A stretch of DNA of 64,000 nt from Aquimarina intermedia (GCF_008124785.1 NZ_VNHU01000002.1:186001-250000); one strand, 5' to 3'. Positions 15,928 to 23,034 are shown, numbered from the stretch's first letter. The notes: generated from the letters alone by a model not told the origin. Program-made: numbers and translations.

Positions 15928-18900
15928 ATGAAAAAACAACTACTCTTTTTCCTATGTCTGCTTCAGGTTGCACTTGTATTTTCTCAAAATTATCCTGTAC
16001 GTGTTACGCCGCAAGGTATTCCTCCTTATCCAAATAGCTTATCCGCATATGATAATACCGATCAGTTAAGAAGTCCGATCAACCTGCTGATAGAGTTTAA
16101 CGATTTGACCGCTGCAAGTCGTGCCGTGCAGTTAAAAATTTCTATCGAGGGCACCAACATTACAGCAACAAGTAAAGCTGTGATCACAGGTGTCCCCAAT
16201 ATAATACTCGATGCCGGATTTCCATTACGTCTAACCAATGCAGAGCTTGCCCCCTATTTTGCCTTACAAAATTTACAAGGCGTTTCTGCACAGCAATACA
16301 ATAATACACTGCCCGACGGTCTCTACCGTATTTGTTTTGAAGTTTTTGATGCTTTTAACGGTAACAAGTTATCCAACACAGGCTGTACAAACATCTTTTT
16401 AGTGAGTAGCGATCCTCCGTTTCTTAACAGACCGGAGAACCGCACGAATCTAACCGAACAGAATCCTACCAATATCCTCTTTCAATGGACACCAAGACAT
16501 GCCGGAGTCCCAAATGTATCTTATGAATTTAGTCTGGTAGAAATTTGGGATCGCTATGCCGATCCTCAAGCAGTATTTTTAGCCTCTCCGCCGATATATC
16601 AGGATATTACCACCGCGACTAATTTATTGTATGGTCCTATACAACCACTCTTACTACCCGGTAAACGTTATGCTTGGAGAGTACGGGCGATAGCTACCAA
16701 TGCCGGTGAAGAGGTATCTGTTTTTAAAAATAACGGCTATAGCGAAATCTTTTGGTTTGATCACGCCAGTGATTGTACACCGGTCACGGCTGTCCAAGTA
16801 CAGGATGCTACGCTAACCACGGCAACTATCAGTTGGATTGGACAACCAGAGCATCTAGATTATACTATCAAGTACCGCGAAAAAGACGGCAACCGTTGGT
16901 ATACTAAGACTACGCCTCGAGATTATATTACCATAGAAGAGTTTAGGCCGGATACTGTGTATGAATTTGTGGTGTTGGGTAATTGTGATAGTGAGAGCTA
17001 TGGCGAATCTCCGCTAAAAGAATTTAGAACCCTCACCCAAGAATTGGCAGAATATACGGATTGTGGCATCGCACCAGAGGATGTGGATCTATCCAACCAG
17101 GAATTGCTTACTGAGCTGCGTAAAAACGATGTCTTTACCGCAGGAGATTTCCCGGTATATGTCAAAAAAGTATCCGGCTCAACCACCTTTAGCGGAGAAG
17201 GATATATTAGCACCCCCTGGCTGGCAACCGTACGTATCCCGGTGACCTTTGATAACATTAAAATAAATACAGATAAGAAACTGGTCGATGGATTTGTCAT
17301 TACTACCTATGACCCTAATTGGGGGAGTATTCTGGATGCAGATGCGGTGATCGAAGAGGCTACCGGAGATCCGGGAGACAAAAACGTGATCAAAGTTGAT
17401 TTTGATATTATTGATGTTCAAGTCAGTAAAGATGGTAAAACAGTTACACTGATAGGTAGCGACGGACAAGAGGTTGTACGCGAAGGCGGCAAAGATGTTG
17501 TATATCAAGATAGCAAAGGTGAGAACTGGGAAGTTAGCGCAGATGGTACGGTAAAAAATAGTCAACAAGCTGATGGCGGTCCTGCAACTAAGGAAACTAC
17601 CGCAGGTATGGGCGGCAGTGGTGTGAACGAAATAACCTCGACCGATGTACGTGTTGATTTTGAAAAAGGAAACGGTTATTATGCCTTTGATCCCTATCCA
17701 ACGGTCACCACCGGTACGTTGAAGGATGCCTATACTACGATCGATATTGCGGGTGGTGGCACCTATTACCCTCCGTACAAAGCAATCTCCAACCTGCCCG
17801 GACATCCAACAGATATCCTTCTTGCTACAGCTACCTTTCAAAATAGCGAGTATACTACCGAGGATATTGTTTTTAAGACTAAAGAGGGAACAGAGATCCC
17901 GGCCGAATGGGTGGATACTACAGCGACACTTACGTTAGAAAAGAAATTTGATTTTGTTAAAGAAGAGATCATTGCTACCGTAAAACCTAAAGATACTACT
18001 CAACAATATACAATCGCAGGTACGGCGAATTATTGGCATTTGGCCTCGCAAGAAGTAACTGATATCAACGTAAAATTAATTTCTGTAAATGGCGCCAGTT
18101 TAGATGGTATTAGAGAGCGTATCAACCAGATTTATAATCCTGCAGGAATTAATTTTGAAGTGACTGAGGCTTCTACTTTAGCTATATCAGACCCGACCAT
18201 TGATGTGGGTAACAGCACCTTATTATCCCAATATACAGACGGAGAAAAAGCCTGGATTGAACAGTTTAAGGCACTCGGTACCTATGAACGCGACACCTAT
18301 TACTTATTTGTAACGGACATCCCTCCTACAGATGCTGATACAGATGGTTTTATGCCATTAAAACGGCAGTTTGGATTTGTATTTGCCGGACAGGACAAAG
18401 GTCGAACGGCGGCACACGAATTAGGACACGGAGTTTTCGGACTAGAACACACCTTTACCGAATATAACACCGATCAAGCAGCTACCAATCTTTTGATGGA
18501 TTATGGCAATGGTACAGCGTTTACCCATATGGATTGGGAAAAAATGCACGCGCCAGGTTTACAACTTTATTGGTTCCAGGGGGATGAGGATGGGGAAAAC
18601 AGAATTAACGATGGTATTGATATTCTTGGTAATATAATTACTAAAGTCGAATACGATAAAAGTAAAATTAAATTAATTGGTGTTACAAGTAATACGTATC
18701 CTTATTTGAGAGGTGGCTATCGTTCATTTTCAATTGATAAAGAAGAACTAATTGATGAATACAAACCAAAAACTAAAGGAAATAAAGTTGTTTATGTAAA
18801 TTCAGAAGGAGAACTAATGCCATATTCTGTGTTAACAACTACTTCCGGTGTAGCTAAAATTAAAGTACTGAATGATAATTGCTCCTACAATGCCGCTGAA

Positions 18901-21132
18901 TTATACTGGGAAAAAGATCAAATCTCTGGTGTTGAAAAAATTATTAATAAAATAAAACAAGAGATAACAAATCAAAAACCTAAATGGAAATCCTATCCTC
19001 TTTATAAACCAGATCCCTCTTGTTTGGTTGTCAATTCGCTAACAGACTTAATAAAGAAAGACCGTGACCAGTCAAAATGTTCCCCAGAGTATATTAAAGA
19101 AGGAGTAGAAAAGCTCGGTAGTCTTTTTTCAAATCCAGATTACGAAATCGAAGACCTGGTTAGCTTAATAGCTGAAGAAGGATTGTGCATTTCATCCATT
19201 AGAGCAGTTATAACTCAGGATAAATTTTCTGCTATAAGTAAAATTGGAAATTCTGACGAATTTTTCTGGGAAAATAAGGAAATAGCCATTTTAAGATTAA
19301 TGGCAGCAATTAGTAGTCAAGATTATAAAGAATTCATTTCACTATTAGGAGAAGACGATAATCAGCTCTTATTAAATCTCATTGATAAGATTCAGGATAG
19401 AAGTATTAACCCTTGGGATGGTGATAATTTCACCTCGTTTATTGGAGCTTTATGTAGTATATACGCAGTTTATCCTGATGTATGGAAAAGTAAAGTTGCA
19501 AATGAAGAAAATAATAAAATTTTTGGTCAGATTATATCTTTAAATCCTTTTGAATTTAAATATGAGAGTTATGGTAATTCTATTCCATTGCTAACCGCTT
19601 TGAATAAAGCAAGATTTGAAGGAAAGTTTAATAGTGTAAAGGATATAGAAATAACAAGATGGAAATATTTCTTACCTTCTAGATCTATACCAACGTGGGC
19701 CAAAGATACAGATTTTGAACCTATACTTCTAGACCCGTTAGATCCAGTAATTATCTATACTGATAATAATCTACTTCTTGTGTCCACTGTTTTAGACTCT
19801 TCAGCAGAAATAGGAAATAATATATATATAGTTCCTGCCTTATTCTTAGAGTTTAAAGATCAAAAAGAATTTAACGATGCAGTAGAAAAAGGTTCAATAA
19901 TTACTCTTGACGTAGCAACTATTTTTCTAAGTGGTGGAACTGCTTTGGCAACAAAAGTACATTGGGCAAGAAGAGTTTGGGCTTCCATGGAGGTAGCTGG
20001 TGCTATTGGTAGTATTGCAACCAACACTATTCCTAACTTATCACCAGAAGCAAAAAAAGCAGTTGATGCCTATAACATAGCAATGTCTCTAATAGGTTTT
20101 AAAAACTTAGGTAAAGGAATTTATAATTATTCCAAAACATTACCAACTACTATTAAAGAAGCCTTTAAAAACAATAAAAATATAAGGGCTATAGTATTGG
20201 CGAAATACTTGGACTGGAAAACAGCTACAAAAAATCTAGACAATCTTAGCTCTGCAGAAAGAGAGTTGATTTCTGATCAGGCTAATGTATGGAAGTCCCT
20301 AGGTTTTGTAGATGATATTGATGATTTATTAAAAAGAATTGATGACTTCAAAACTCGAATTAAAGGGCTTAATGAAGGTCAAGGTTTACCCAACTTAGTC
20401 AACAAATTTGACGATTTAGATGATATTACAAAAAGTAAGTTCTTAGGTGATTTTGAAAATGCTTCTGATTGGGCACTTAATGAAATTAACAAAAGTAGTT
20501 CTTCCGCATTTGAGGGATGGAAAAAATATGCCTCAGAAATTAAGGGAAGACGTCAATACACCGCTCCAAATGACAAAGATATCTCAGATGTAAAAAAATC
20601 ATTAACTGACCCTCAGGAAATTAGGTTGGTAGAAAACGTTGATGATATTGAGATGCCATTTAAAGACTCGTCTTTTGTGTGTGCAGGAGGTTACCATCCA
20701 AGCATTGATAGTGGAGAAATTATCACCCATTATAATCTTAAGGGAGTAGAAAACGAATATGTTGCAACACAGAAGTATAAAACTTTCTTAGAAAATGAAC
20801 TAACATCTTTTATAATATCAGAAAAAATTGATCTTTTAAACTTGATAAGAACGGACAAAAGTAAAGGTGGAGAATTGTATAAAAAAATATATGAAATAAT
20901 TCCAGAAAAATTTAGTAAAATAGATGGTGCTAGCCAAGCAGGAAGTCACGCCGAAGTTAGAGTTTTTAATGAAATTCTTAAAAAAATGACTGCCAATGGT
21001 ATTCCACTTAATGATACTGAACTAAGTAAAATCAGAATATTCATTAAAAATAAAAATGGAAGAAACATGTGCCGTTGTCCACATTGTTATTATTTAATTG
21101 GTGATAAGGTAAAAATCATTGGAAATGAGTAG
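15928..21132 (+). CDS. TANFOR/Fn3/metalloprotease-like protein with C-terminal deaminase toxin domain
   Basis: 1734 residues, signal peptide (MKKQLLFFLCLLQVALVFSQ). Order of parts: a TANFOR-type domain at about 22-170 (IPPYPNSLSAY, LPDGLYRICFEVFDA); a second beta domain with the WTPRHAGVPNVSYEFSLVE repeat; Fn3 at about 282-369; a beta-rich stretch; a metzincin-like site HELGHGVFGLEH at 830-841 with a possible Met-turn (LLMDYGNG); an AT-rich region of unknown fold; a hydrophobic segment at about 1322-1400; and from about 1540 a domain holding SHAEV (His1674, Glu1676) and CRCPHC (Cys1717, Cys1720). The HAE...CxxC pair is the zinc site of the nucleic-acid deaminase superfamily, common in bacterial polymorphic toxins. 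Base composition changes near 18590. No T9SS sorting domain is seen. Toxin function is inferred from architecture and neighbours. Confidence 0.85.
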   Translation: MKKQLLFFLCLLQVALVFSQNYPVRVTPQGIPPYPNSLSAYDNTDQLRSPINLLIEFNDLTAASRAVQLKISIEGTNITATSKAVITGVPNIILDAGFPLRLTNAELAPYFALQNLQGVSAQQYNNTLPDGLYRICFEVFDAFNGNKLSNTGCTNIFLVSSDPPFLNRPENRTNLTEQNPTNILFQWTPRHAGVPNVSYEFSLVEIWDRYADPQAVFLASPPIYQDITTATNLLYGPIQPLLLPGKRYAWRVRAIATNAGEEVSVFKNNGYSEIFWFDHASDCTPVTAVQVQDATLTTATISWIGQPEHLDYTIKYREKDGNRWYTKTTPRDYITIEEFRPDTVYEFVVLGNCDSESYGESPLKEFRTLTQELAEYTDCGIAPEDVDLSNQELLTELRKNDVFTAGDFPVYVKKVSGSTTFSGEGYISTPWLATVRIPVTFDNIKINTDKKLVDGFVITTYDPNWGSILDADAVIEEATGDPGDKNVIKVDFDIIDVQVSKDGKTVTLIGSDGQEVVREGGKDVVYQDSKGENWEVSADGTVKNSQQADGGPATKETTAGMGGSGVNEITSTDVRVDFEKGNGYYAFDPYPTVTTGTLKDAYTTIDIAGGGTYYPPYKAISNLPGHPTDILLATATFQNSEYTTEDIVFKTKEGTEIPAEWVDTTATLTLEKKFDFVKEEIIATVKPKDTTQQYTIAGTANYWHLASQEVTDINVKLISVNGASLDGIRERINQIYNPAGINFEVTEASTLAISDPTIDVGNSTLLSQYTDGEKAWIEQFKALGTYERDTYYLFVTDIPPTDADTDGFMPLKRQFGFVFAGQDKGRTAAHELGHGVFGLEHTFTEYNTDQAATNLLMDYGNGTAFTHMDWEKMHAPGLQLYWFQGDEDGENRINDGIDILGNIITKVEYDKSKIKLIGVTSNTYPYLRGGYRSFSIDKEELIDEYKPKTKGNKVVYVNSEGELMPYSVLTTTSGVAKIKVLNDNCSYNAAELYWEKDQISGVEKIINKIKQEITNQKPKWKSYPLYKPDPSCLVVNSLTDLIKKDRDQSKCSPEYIKEGVEKLGSLFSNPDYEIEDLVSLIAEEGLCISSIRAVITQDKFSAISKIGNSDEFFWENKEIAILRLMAAISSQDYKEFISLLGEDDNQLLLNLIDKIQDRSINPWDGDNFTSFIGALCSIYAVYPDVWKSKVANEENNKIFGQIISLNPFEFKYESYGNSIPLLTALNKARFEGKFNSVKDIEITRWKYFLPSRSIPTWAKDTDFEPILLDPLDPVIIYTDNNLLLVSTVLDSSAEIGNNIYIVPALFLEFKDQKEFNDAVEKGSIITLDVATIFLSGGTALATKVHWARRVWASMEVAGAIGSIATNTIPNLSPEAKKAVDAYNIAMSLIGFKNLGKGIYNYSKTLPTTIKEAFKNNKNIRAIVLAKYLDWKTATKNLDNLSSAERELISDQANVWKSLGFVDDIDDLLKRIDDFKTRIKGLNEGQGLPNLVNKFDDLDDITKSKFLGDFENASDWALNEINKSSSSAFEGWKKYASEIKGRRQYTAPNDKDISDVKKSLTDPQEIRLVENVDDIEMPFKDSSFVCAGGYHPSIDSGEIITHYNLKGVENEYVATQKYKTFLENELTSFIISEKIDLLNLIRTDKSKGGELYKKIYEIIPEKFSKIDGASQAGSHAEVRVFNEILKKMTANGIPLNDTELSKIRIFIKNKNGRNMCRCPHCYYLIGDKVKIIGNE

Positions 21133-22396
21133 CAATTATTATAAGTTTCAAAGAAAAAACGAATTAGTTTTTAACAACCTGAATCTTCATGAGTCAGTTT
21201 CGCCAAAGAAATATTTGGACACTTTGTTCTCTGGCGTTCTAGAAGAGAAATATAATAGTGGCGAAATGATTTCAAGGAGGACTTATGTTGCAGGCTATTT
21301 ATATGGTTTATATATCTACGAAGACTCCTTTGAAAGAGTATATGGTTCGATGTGTTTTGAATACTATAATGGATATTTATTAAGGTATTATAAGAATACT
21401 AACAGCGTTTCTTTTGAAGTTTATGATATGGGGTTCCCATTGGAATCTGTTTATAACGATAAGGGTAAAACAATAGAAGCTAGGAAAATTGAAGTTAACG
21501 ACACATTTCAGAATAAAAATATTGCAGATTTTAATTCTATTGTTGAAGATATGGAAAAAACATATGATGTAGCCATAGACGATGCGGACTCTATATTGGG
21601 ATGGACACTTTCGAATTACGTTACTGATGAGATAAGCATAGAAGATCTTCAAAAAGGAATTTGGAAAATTTATAGAAAGGATAAAATGGAAAAAGGCTTG
21701 TATAACGACGATTTTTTAAAGTTCTATTCTGAACAAGAAAAACTCAAAAATAGAATAATAAAAGAAGATCAATTTGAGAATAAAGTAAAGCTTATAGCTG
21801 GAGTGGATGTAGCTTATAATGAAATGGAACAAACAATGGTCGGAGCGATTGTCGTTCTAAATATTGATACACTTGAGGTAATAGAACAAGCTCATCATAA
21901 AATGAATATTACATTTCCGTACGTGCCAGGTTTGTTTTCTTTTAGGGAAGTTCCTCCCATAATCGAAGCCTTTAATAAATTAAAAGTAAAACCAGACTTA
22001 ATAGTTTGCGATGCTCAAGGAGTTGCTCATCCAAAAAATGTTGGAATGGCGACACACTTAGGAATCCAATTGAATATTCCCACTATTGGATGTGCAAAAA
22101 AAAGACTTGTTGGATATTATGATAAAGAAAAGCTTGGAAGTAAAAGAGGAGATAGGCAATCTTTAATCTGGAATAGTGAAGAAGTCGGAGTTGCATTAAT
22201 AACTCAAGATGATATAAAACCAATGTTTGTTTCAATTGGTCATAAAATTAATCTGGGAACAGCTGTCGATTGGGTGCTTAAATTAACTCCAAAATATAGA
22301 TTACCTGAGACAACAAGACAAGCCGATCAACTAGTTAATAAAATTATCAAAAACAGGACTGAGTTTGATTTTTTATATGATAATGATTCCGAATAA
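21125..22396 (+). CDS. Candidate immunity protein: unknown N-terminal domain fused to endonuclease V
   Basis: 423 residues. Residues 1 to about 195 match nothing I recognise (YVAGYLYGLYIYEDSFERVY, SILGWTLSNYVTDE). From about 205 the sequence is a full endonuclease V: GVDVAYNE, FPYVPGLFSFREVPP, DLIVCDAQGVAHPKNVG, IGCAKKRLVG, SIGHKINLGTAVDW. The catalytic acids Asp228, Glu275 and Asp296 are all present, with spacing close to the Escherichia coli enzyme (35, 89, 110). Endonuclease V cuts next to inosine. ATG 21125 overlaps the toxin stop by 8 bases, the usual place for an immunity gene; a TTG at 21119 is less likely. Free-standing endonuclease V is about 220 residues, so the fusion is unusual. 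I infer that the N-terminal half binds the deaminase and that the nuclease handles inosine damage. Confidence 0.88.
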   Translation: MSSNYYKFQRKNELVFNNLNLHESVSPKKYLDTLFSGVLEEKYNSGEMISRRTYVAGYLYGLYIYEDSFERVYGSMCFEYYNGYLLRYYKNTNSVSFEVYDMGFPLESVYNDKGKTIEARKIEVNDTFQNKNIADFNSIVEDMEKTYDVAIDDADSILGWTLSNYVTDEISIEDLQKGIWKIYRKDKMEKGLYNDDFLKFYSEQEKLKNRIIKEDQFENKVKLIAGVDVAYNEMEQTMVGAIVVLNIDTLEVIEQAHHKMNITFPYVPGLFSFREVPPIIEAFNKLKVKPDLIVCDAQGVAHPKNVGMATHLGIQLNIPTIGCAKKRLVGYYDKEKLGSKRGDRQSLIWNSEEVGVALITQDDIKPMFVSIGHKINLGTAVDWVLKLTPKYRLPETTRQADQLVNKIIKNRTEFDFLYDNDSE

Positions 22397-22467: not shown

Positions 22468-23034
22468 ATGAGCAGAAAATATAAATTCCATAATCCATCA
22501 GCAGCGTATTTCATAAGCTTCGCTACTGTGTATTGGATGGACGTGTTTACGCGTCAGGAATACTTTTCTGAATTAGCTGACAGCTTAGCGTATTGTAGAA
22601 AAGAAAAAGGAATGGAAGTTTTTGCATATTGTTTTATGCCAAGTCATGTGCATTTAATTTTTAGATCATCGAAGGAAGATCCTTCTGGTTTACTAAGAGA
22701 TTTTAAAGGATTTACTGCTAAAAAATTAATCAAAACTATACAAGAAAATCAACAAGAGAGCCGAAAAGAATGGTTACTATGGATGATGGAAAAAGCTGGA
22801 AAAAAGAATAGTAATGTAACAAAATATCAATTATGGCAACAACATAACAAACCGATTGAATTATGGACAGATAAAGTCATACAACAAAAGATCGATTATA
22901 TTCATAAGAATCCTGTAGAATCAGGTTTTGTAACTGATGCTGTAGATTGGAAATATAGCAGTGCAAGAAATTATCAAGATGATCATACAATTTTAAAAAT
23001 TGACAGCGATGGATTTTTACTTGGATTGGCATAA
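22468..23034 (+). CDS. REP-associated tyrosine transposase (RAYT, Y1 family)
   Basis: A 188-residue Y1/HUH transposase of the RAYT group: FHNPSAAYFISFATVYWMDVF at the N-terminus, the HUH metal motif in FMPSHVHLIF, and the C-terminal KIDYIHKNPVESGFVTDAVDWKYSSARNY block that carries the nucleophilic tyrosine region. RAYTs are linked to the spread of REP sequences by cutting single-stranded DNA at palindromes; here REP-like sequences lie on both sides. It appears intact. It is a passenger in the toxin cassette region, sitting between the immunity gene and the orphan toxin fragment. Confidence 0.93.
   Translation: MSRKYKFHNPSAAYFISFATVYWMDVFTRQEYFSELADSLAYCRKEKGMEVFAYCFMPSHVHLIFRSSKEDPSGLLRDFKGFTAKKLIKTIQENQQESRKEWLLWMMEKAGKKNSNVTKYQLWQQHNKPIELWTDKVIQQKIDYIHKNPVESGFVTDAVDWKYSSARNYQDDHTILKIDSDGFLLGLA

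What the first reader, a model, noticed from the sequence alone, without database searches (positions are those of the whole stretch)
20540..22396. Deaminase toxin tip paired with an endonuclease V fused to an unknown domain
Seen: the large protein ends in a domain with HAE (His1674, Glu1676) and CPHC (Cys1717-Cys1720), the zinc site of nucleic-acid deaminases. The next gene overlaps it by 8 bases and encodes about 200 unfamiliar residues followed by an endonuclease V with all three catalytic acids (Asp228, Glu275, Asp296). Known: endonuclease V recognises inosine/deoxyinosine, the product of adenine deamination; immunity genes sit directly behind toxin tips. Inference: the toxin deaminates adenine in DNA or RNA, and self-protection combines a blocker domain with a nuclease that starts repair of, or destroys, inosine-bearing nucleic acid. 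Immunity by product clearance would be an unusual principle. I cannot exclude that related pairs have been described.
Basis: partly seen in the sequence, partly recalled or inferred. Interest (0 to 1): 0.93.

Follow-up and report, generated by a model that had tools for sequence, protein, structure and literature searches.

The report
Deaminase toxin with MORN–EndoV immunity fusion
A large secreted bacterial toxin ends in a probable base-deaminating domain, and the gene behind it fuses a probable toxin-blocking domain to a repair enzyme that cuts nucleic acid at deaminated bases; related toxins keep this repair enzyme beside them in unrelated bacteria, which suggests that self-protection includes cleaning up the toxin's damage.

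Summary
The "unknown" residues are largely a MORN-type sheet like YwqK immunity proteins, so the partner is in effect a YwqK–YwqL fusion beside a YwqJ-type deaminase tip. In Bacillus subtilis ywqJ (toxin), ywqK (antitoxin) and ywqL (endonuclease V) already share an operon, so the pairing is known; the fusion and the wide recurrence are what this adds. Of 80 loci chosen only by EndoV similarity, 15 (11 genus-level groups, three phyla) carry a homologous HAE/CxxC tip or remnant, all within 914 bp of EndoV (chance about 2e-9, one per group). Twelve of those genomes have exactly one such tip genome-wide. The few CAE-type relatives examined use SUKH or other immunity genes without EndoV. Five fused EndoVs have lost the catalytic Asp; four of them are followed by an intact EndoV. 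Best reading: two-tier immunity, a blocker plus product clearance. That adenine is the target is not shown: B. subtilis EndoV cuts uracil and hypoxanthine DNA about equally. Against EndoV being required: YwqK alone neutralises YwqJ in B. subtilis, and one locus has a decayed EndoV beside intact toxin and MORN genes.

The parts
15928..21132 (+). Large polymorphic toxin, 1734 aa, with an apparent Sec signal peptide, an fn3 domain, a metallopeptidase-like motif and a C-terminal deaminase tip
   Evidence: ORF; fn3 PF00041 E 8.4e-8; TANFOR TIGR02542 E 3.9e-6 but below its cut-off; a region upstream of the tip is shared with 1.5-2.5 kaa proteins in 18 other genomes of the genus, with homology ending before the tip
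20578..21132 (+). Deaminase tip (residues 1551-1734)
   Evidence: PF14431 YwqJ-deaminase E 1.2e-4, below the gathering score; homologous by profile to tips that pass PF14431; AlphaFold2 pLDDT 83.5, pTM 0.83
20947..20955 (+). HAE motif, residues 1674-1676 (predicted zinc ligand His and catalytic Glu)
   Evidence: Sequence; H and E invariant in 12 HAE-type tips
21076..21087 (+). CPHC, residues 1717-1720 (predicted zinc ligands)
   Evidence: Sequence; both Cys invariant
21125..22396 (+). Immunity partner, 423 aa: MORN-type domain, helical linker, endonuclease V
   Evidence: ORF with 8 bp overlap; AlphaFold2 pLDDT 78.4, pTM 0.80
21212..21487 (+). MORN/YwqK-like domain (residues 30-121), predicted toxin-binding immunity domain
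   Evidence: Profile of YwqK-like immunity genes, E 7.5e-7; consecutive antiparallel strands; aligns with the N-terminal domains of fused relatives
21500..21691 (+). Helical linker (residues 126-189)
   Evidence: AlphaFold2, lower confidence
21710..22345 (+). Endonuclease V domain (residues 196-407) with Asp228, Glu275, Asp296, Lys325, His373
   Evidence: PF04493 E 3.5e-72; NCBIfam deoxyribonuclease V above cut-off; Foldseek to 3goc E 1.7e-23 and E. coli EndoV 4xpu E 2.0e-22

Best explanation
A polymorphic, probably antibacterial toxin carries a YwqJ-type deaminase tip acting on nucleic acid or nucleotides. Its partner is a fused two-tier immunity protein. The MORN (YwqK-like) half binds and blocks the tip before export. 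The EndoV half cuts nucleic acid at bases that were deaminated anyway, starting repair or turnover. Shown by sequence: the architecture, the EndoV family with intact catalytic residues, and the recurrent linkage of HAE-type tips with EndoV across three phyla. Inferred: the deaminase activity, blocking by the MORN half, and that EndoV clears the tip's product.
For: (1) Of 80 loci picked only by EndoV similarity, 15 carry a homologous tip or remnant, all within 914 bp; chance 2.6e-13, or 2e-9 with one per genus-level group. (2) Twelve of those genomes have exactly one tip genome-wide, the one beside EndoV. (3) Layouts differ: fusion behind the tip in Bacteroidota; EndoV convergent with an immunity gene and the toxin in Bacillota and Pseudomonadota, so inheritance of a single arrangement is not the whole reason. 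(4) In G375 two EndoV fusions each directly follow a broken tip remnant. (5) The genus mostly lacks a full EndoV: none of 33 other species sampled has more than a weak 29-39 bit match; the window's is the only one in its genome. (6) Five distinct fused EndoVs lost the catalytic Asp (to Ser or Cys) and the wedge Tyr; four of them have an intact EndoV directly behind them. (7) Immunity genes beside linked tips in L087, L101, L145 and L162 are MORN_2 proteins by Pfam. (8) In B. subtilis, YwqJ is toxic and YwqJ with YwqK is not (PMC8321402); the operon continues to ywqL.
Against: YwqJ induction stops growth in B. subtilis, and adding YwqK alone is enough, so EndoV is not shown to be needed and native EndoV does not suffice. 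L162 has intact toxin and MORN beside a decayed EndoV, although that genome keeps an intact EndoV about 19 kb away. G560 has tip and MORN but no EndoV found (81% complete, 610 contigs). L093's fused EndoV has Asp110 replaced by Asn and no other EndoV was found in that genome. One dead fusion in G375 has no adjacent intact EndoV. YwqJ induction had no visible effect on chromosome or rRNA, and its authors suggest small-molecule targets. Most EndoVs in the set have no tip nearby.
Confidence: 0.6

Rival explanations
1. The tip deaminates cytosine (as DddA and SsdA do) and EndoV clears uracil or AP sites.
For: B. subtilis EndoV cleaves U, hypoxanthine and AP sites about equally (PMC6364969). The characterised interbacterial DNA deaminase toxins DddA and SsdA act on cytosine (PMC9990079).
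Against: Uracil-DNA glycosylase normally handles uracil, so recurrent recruitment of EndoV would be harder to explain (inference; linkage of UDG genes was not tested).
Confidence: 0.25
2. The tip deaminates free nucleotides (for example dATP to dITP), and EndoV removes hypoxanthine after it has been incorporated into DNA.
For: YwqJ induction left chromosome and rRNA apparently intact, and its authors suggest small-molecule targets (PMC8321402). EndoV acts on hypoxanthine in DNA.
Against: The gel assay would not detect base changes, so it does not exclude nucleic-acid targets. No metabolite evidence here.
Confidence: 0.2
3. The EndoV fold is used as a binding or decoy module, and catalysis is not important.
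For: Five distinct fused EndoVs have lost the catalytic Asp and wedge Tyr, and L093 has Asp110 to Asn.
Against: Catalytic residues are intact in the window, L066, L068 and L076 fusions and in nearly all stand-alone linked EndoVs; four of the five dead copies have an intact EndoV beside them.
Confidence: 0.12
4. The immunity half is cognate, but EndoV is a bystander, joined because toxin cassettes insert near an EndoV gene.
For: Many EndoVs have no tip nearby, and the linkage label changes about 12 times on the EndoV tree.
Against: The genus mostly lacks EndoV, layouts and orientations differ among phyla, and the linkage recurs in 11 genus-level groups.
Confidence: 0.08

Closest known systems
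Bacillus subtilis ywqH-I-J-K-L (LXG toxin YwqJ, antitoxin YwqK, EndoV YwqL)
   Same: Deaminase-like toxin, antitoxin and endonuclease V genes in one operon (PMC8321402; PMC6364969); PF14431 and PF04493 both ring in B. subtilis
   Different: Three separate genes and an LXG toxin. Here a Bacteroidota polymorphic toxin with the MORN and EndoV parts fused, and a tip below the PF14431 cut-off
Bxa with Bsi and BAH (Bacteroides stercoris prophage)
   Same: Two-tier immunity: one protein blocks the toxin, one enzyme reverses its damage (PMC11699363)
   Different: ADP-ribosyltransferase toxin and two separate immunity genes; here deamination is inferred and the tiers are fused
DarT/DarG
   Same: Antitoxin enzymatically removes the toxin's DNA modification (PMC9967889)
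   Different: ADP-ribosylation removed by a macrodomain; intracellular toxin-antitoxin system, not a polymorphic toxin cassette
DddA and SsdA interbacterial deaminase toxins
   Same: Deaminase-fold polymorphic toxin tips (PMC9990079)
   Different: Other deaminase families, acting on cytosine; EndoV linkage not examined for them here

Membership tests
YwqJ-like deaminase (PF14431) | Score above the curated gathering cut-off | tested here: not met
   22.7 bits against 25.9. EndoV-linked relatives L087, L145, L101, L138 and L092 pass, and a profile holding the window tip finds them
YwqJ-like deaminase (PF14431) | Zinc motif [H/C]AE plus CxxC | tested here: met
   HAE 1674-1676, CPHC 1717-1720
Deaminase fold | Structural match to solved deaminases | tested here: inconclusive
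   Good model, but no significant PDB match; best sensible hit is M. tuberculosis cytidine deaminase 3ijf, probability 0.30
Deaminase fold | Deaminase activity | not testable with these tools
   No assay
Endonuclease V | Family profile, fold and catalytic residues | tested here: met
   PF04493 E 3.5e-72; Asp228, Glu275, Asp296, Lys325, His373; Foldseek E 1.7e-23 to 3goc
YwqK-type MORN immunity | Match to a profile of YwqK-like immunity genes | tested here: met
   E 7.5e-7 over residues 29-128 (ORF from 21119) with a four-sequence profile built here
YwqK-type MORN immunity | Pfam MORN_2 (PF07661) | tested here: not met
   No MORN_2 match in the window's partner, though four neighbour immunity proteins pass
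Polymorphic toxin | Conserved upstream region joined to different C-terminal tips, immunity gene directly behind | tested here: met
   Pre-tip region shared in 18 genus mates with homology ending before the tip; partner overlaps by 8 bp
TANFOR polymorphic toxins | TIGR02542 above cut-off | tested here: not met
   26.8 bits against 67, E 3.9e-6
Two-tier immunity (Bxa/Bsi/BAH-like) | One component blocks, one reverses toxin damage | not testable with these tools
   Inferred from domains only

The most novel reading that the evidence does not exclude
HAE-type YwqJ tips are natural adenine deaminases of DNA or RNA, and bacteria survive their own toxin by pairing a blocker with repair of inosine-bearing nucleic acid, here welded into one protein.
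Probability: 0.35. Interest if true: 0.88.

Novelty: new variant of a known kind. Interest (0 to 1): 0.7.

Why it matters
The substrate of YwqJ-type toxins is unknown in the papers read. Conserved EndoV linkage predicts that HAE-type tips make deaminated bases that end up in nucleic acid, and makes this directly testable in laboratory strains. A natural adenine-acting nucleic-acid deaminase would also interest base editing. Immunity by repair of the product, alongside a blocker, would extend to deaminases a principle known for ADP-ribosylation.

Tried and rejected
A first genome-contig scan with the tip found no relatives, plasmid searches with the tip or the N-terminal domain found none, and a viral scan found none. 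Searches failed because I used a wrong frame. Other EndoVs in large open frames (G164, G165, G286) were fetched to look for fusions; no obvious tip was seen in the output, part of which was cut, and they were not pursued. Housekeeping EndoVs of Bacteroidota (L028-L056) had no tip hit, but only about 1.4 kb of flank was held. PADLOC found nothing. Iyer et al. 2011 (PMC3239186), which may discuss EndoV beside deaminase toxins, is not held, so a prior description cannot be excluded. A chance or hot-spot origin of the pairing was considered and judged unlikely.

Full report
Check of the observation. The toxin ORF is 15928-21132 and the partner runs from ATG 21125 to a stop ending at 22396, overlapping by 8 bp. 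EndoV is unambiguous by Pfam, NCBIfam and Foldseek.

What the "unknown" domain is. No Pfam family passes its cut-off in residues 1-195. A profile made from four small genes that lie next to EndoV in other bacteria and look like YwqK matches residues 29-128 at E 7.5e-7. Several of these and related genes (L087, L101, L145, L162) are MORN_2 proteins by Pfam. AlphaFold2 predicts consecutive antiparallel strands from about 37 to 121, then helices, then EndoV. I therefore read it as a YwqK-like MORN domain. The profile was small and made here, so this is good but not independent evidence.

The tip. PF14431 (YwqJ-deaminase) matches below its cut-off, but tips of the same homologous group beside EndoV in Brevibacillus, Aneurinibacillus, Vibrio, Pseudoalteromonas and a gammaproteobacterium pass it. 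The model is confident (pTM 0.83) but has no significant PDB match, so the deaminase assignment rests mainly on sequence.

Linkage. The 80 loci L066-L145 were selected only by similarity to an EndoV alignment. Searching them with a tip profile, iterated three times, found tips or remnants in 15 loci from 11 genus-level groups, each within 914 bp of EndoV and none elsewhere in those loci. Two of the six seed tips (L067, L093) came from these loci; the first-round profile found L068, L069, L087, L092, L096, L098, L101, L106, L129, L138 and L145 at E below 1e-3 without having seen them. A position test gives 2.6e-13 overall and 2e-9 with one locus per group. Twelve of 15 genomes searched whole have exactly one tip, the linked one. 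The EndoV tree needs about 12 changes of the linkage label, at least 7 forced by supported branches.

Layouts. Bacteroidota: tip followed by fusion (window, L093, G375), tip followed by another immunity gene and a separate EndoV (L067), or mixtures of these (L068, L069). Bacillota and Pseudomonadota: EndoV mostly convergent with an immunity gene and toxin. In a sample of genomes not chosen by EndoV, one HAE-type tip (L162) had MORN and a decayed EndoV, and three CAE-type tips had no EndoV nearby. CAE-type tips of Flavobacteriaceae have SUKH-like neighbours, one confirmed as SUKH-3. The HAE/CAE split is suggestive; the numbers are small.

Dead and live copies. Of 116 EndoV domains, six rows (five distinct genes, since L039 and L057 hold the same one) have Asp35 (E. 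coli numbering) changed to Ser or Cys together with Tyr80 to His; Glu89, Asp110 and Lys139 remain. All five are fusions in Flavobacterium or G375. Four are directly followed by an intact stand-alone EndoV; the second G375 copy is an orphan. L093 carries Asp110 to Asn; Asp110Asn and Glu89Gln Thermotoga EndoV were used for inosine-DNA complexes in the PDB. I read this as selection to keep one active EndoV, but it also leaves a binding role open.

Mechanism. Blocker plus product clearance is my preferred reading (0.6). That the partner is the cognate immunity gene I put near 0.9; that catalytic EndoV activity matters, about 0.6; that adenine is the target, about 0.35-0.4. The B. subtilis experiment shows that YwqK is enough to neutralise YwqJ and that a wild-type background does not rescue overexpressed YwqJ, so EndoV is probably a second line for leaked or low-level toxin. 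B. subtilis EndoV biochemistry does not identify the base.

Novelty. B. subtilis already has the three genes in one operon. Zhang et al. 2012 list SUKH and Imm6 as partners of YwqJ deaminases; in the part of the text held, the EndoV passages shown concern EndoVII, and MORN does not occur. No paper found in the open library describes EndoV as immunity to a deaminase toxin, but the key 2011 paper is not held. Hence "new variant of a known kind".

Noticed in passing
window 22468-23034: A Y1 (IS200-like) transposase, PF01797 E 5e-9, lies directly behind the partner gene; related transposases (50-55% identical) lie directly behind two toxin-immunity cassettes in G375, so they may help move cassettes.
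   Followed up: partly
window 18415-18450: Toxin residues 830-841 read HELGHGVFGLEH, a metallopeptidase-like motif; Reprolysin models match weakly below cut-off. It may process the toxin.
   Followed up: no
L057 1-20000 and L058 1-2500 (G375): An array of short toxin and immunity cassettes with repeated N-terminal segments, including two EndoV fusions behind broken deaminase tips.
   Followed up: partly
L163, L164, L165, L011-L013, L015: CAE-type relatives of the tip have SUKH or other immunity genes and no EndoV nearby, unlike HAE-type tips.
   Followed up: partly
L067 8466-8960 and L068 7825-8283: Two small genes between tip and EndoV have no Pfam match; they look like a further immunity family.
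   Followed up: no
L092 9675-10571, also L085, L098, L114: Pseudoalteromonas has a 298-aa protein with only a weak MORN match next to EndoV, sometimes without a recognisable tip; possibly orphan immunity.
   Followed up: no
L016 3753-5612 (Paenibacillus plasmid pART37): A short deaminase-tip remnant lies about 1.1 kb before an intact EndoV, with a DNA polymerase IV gene behind it.
   Followed up: no
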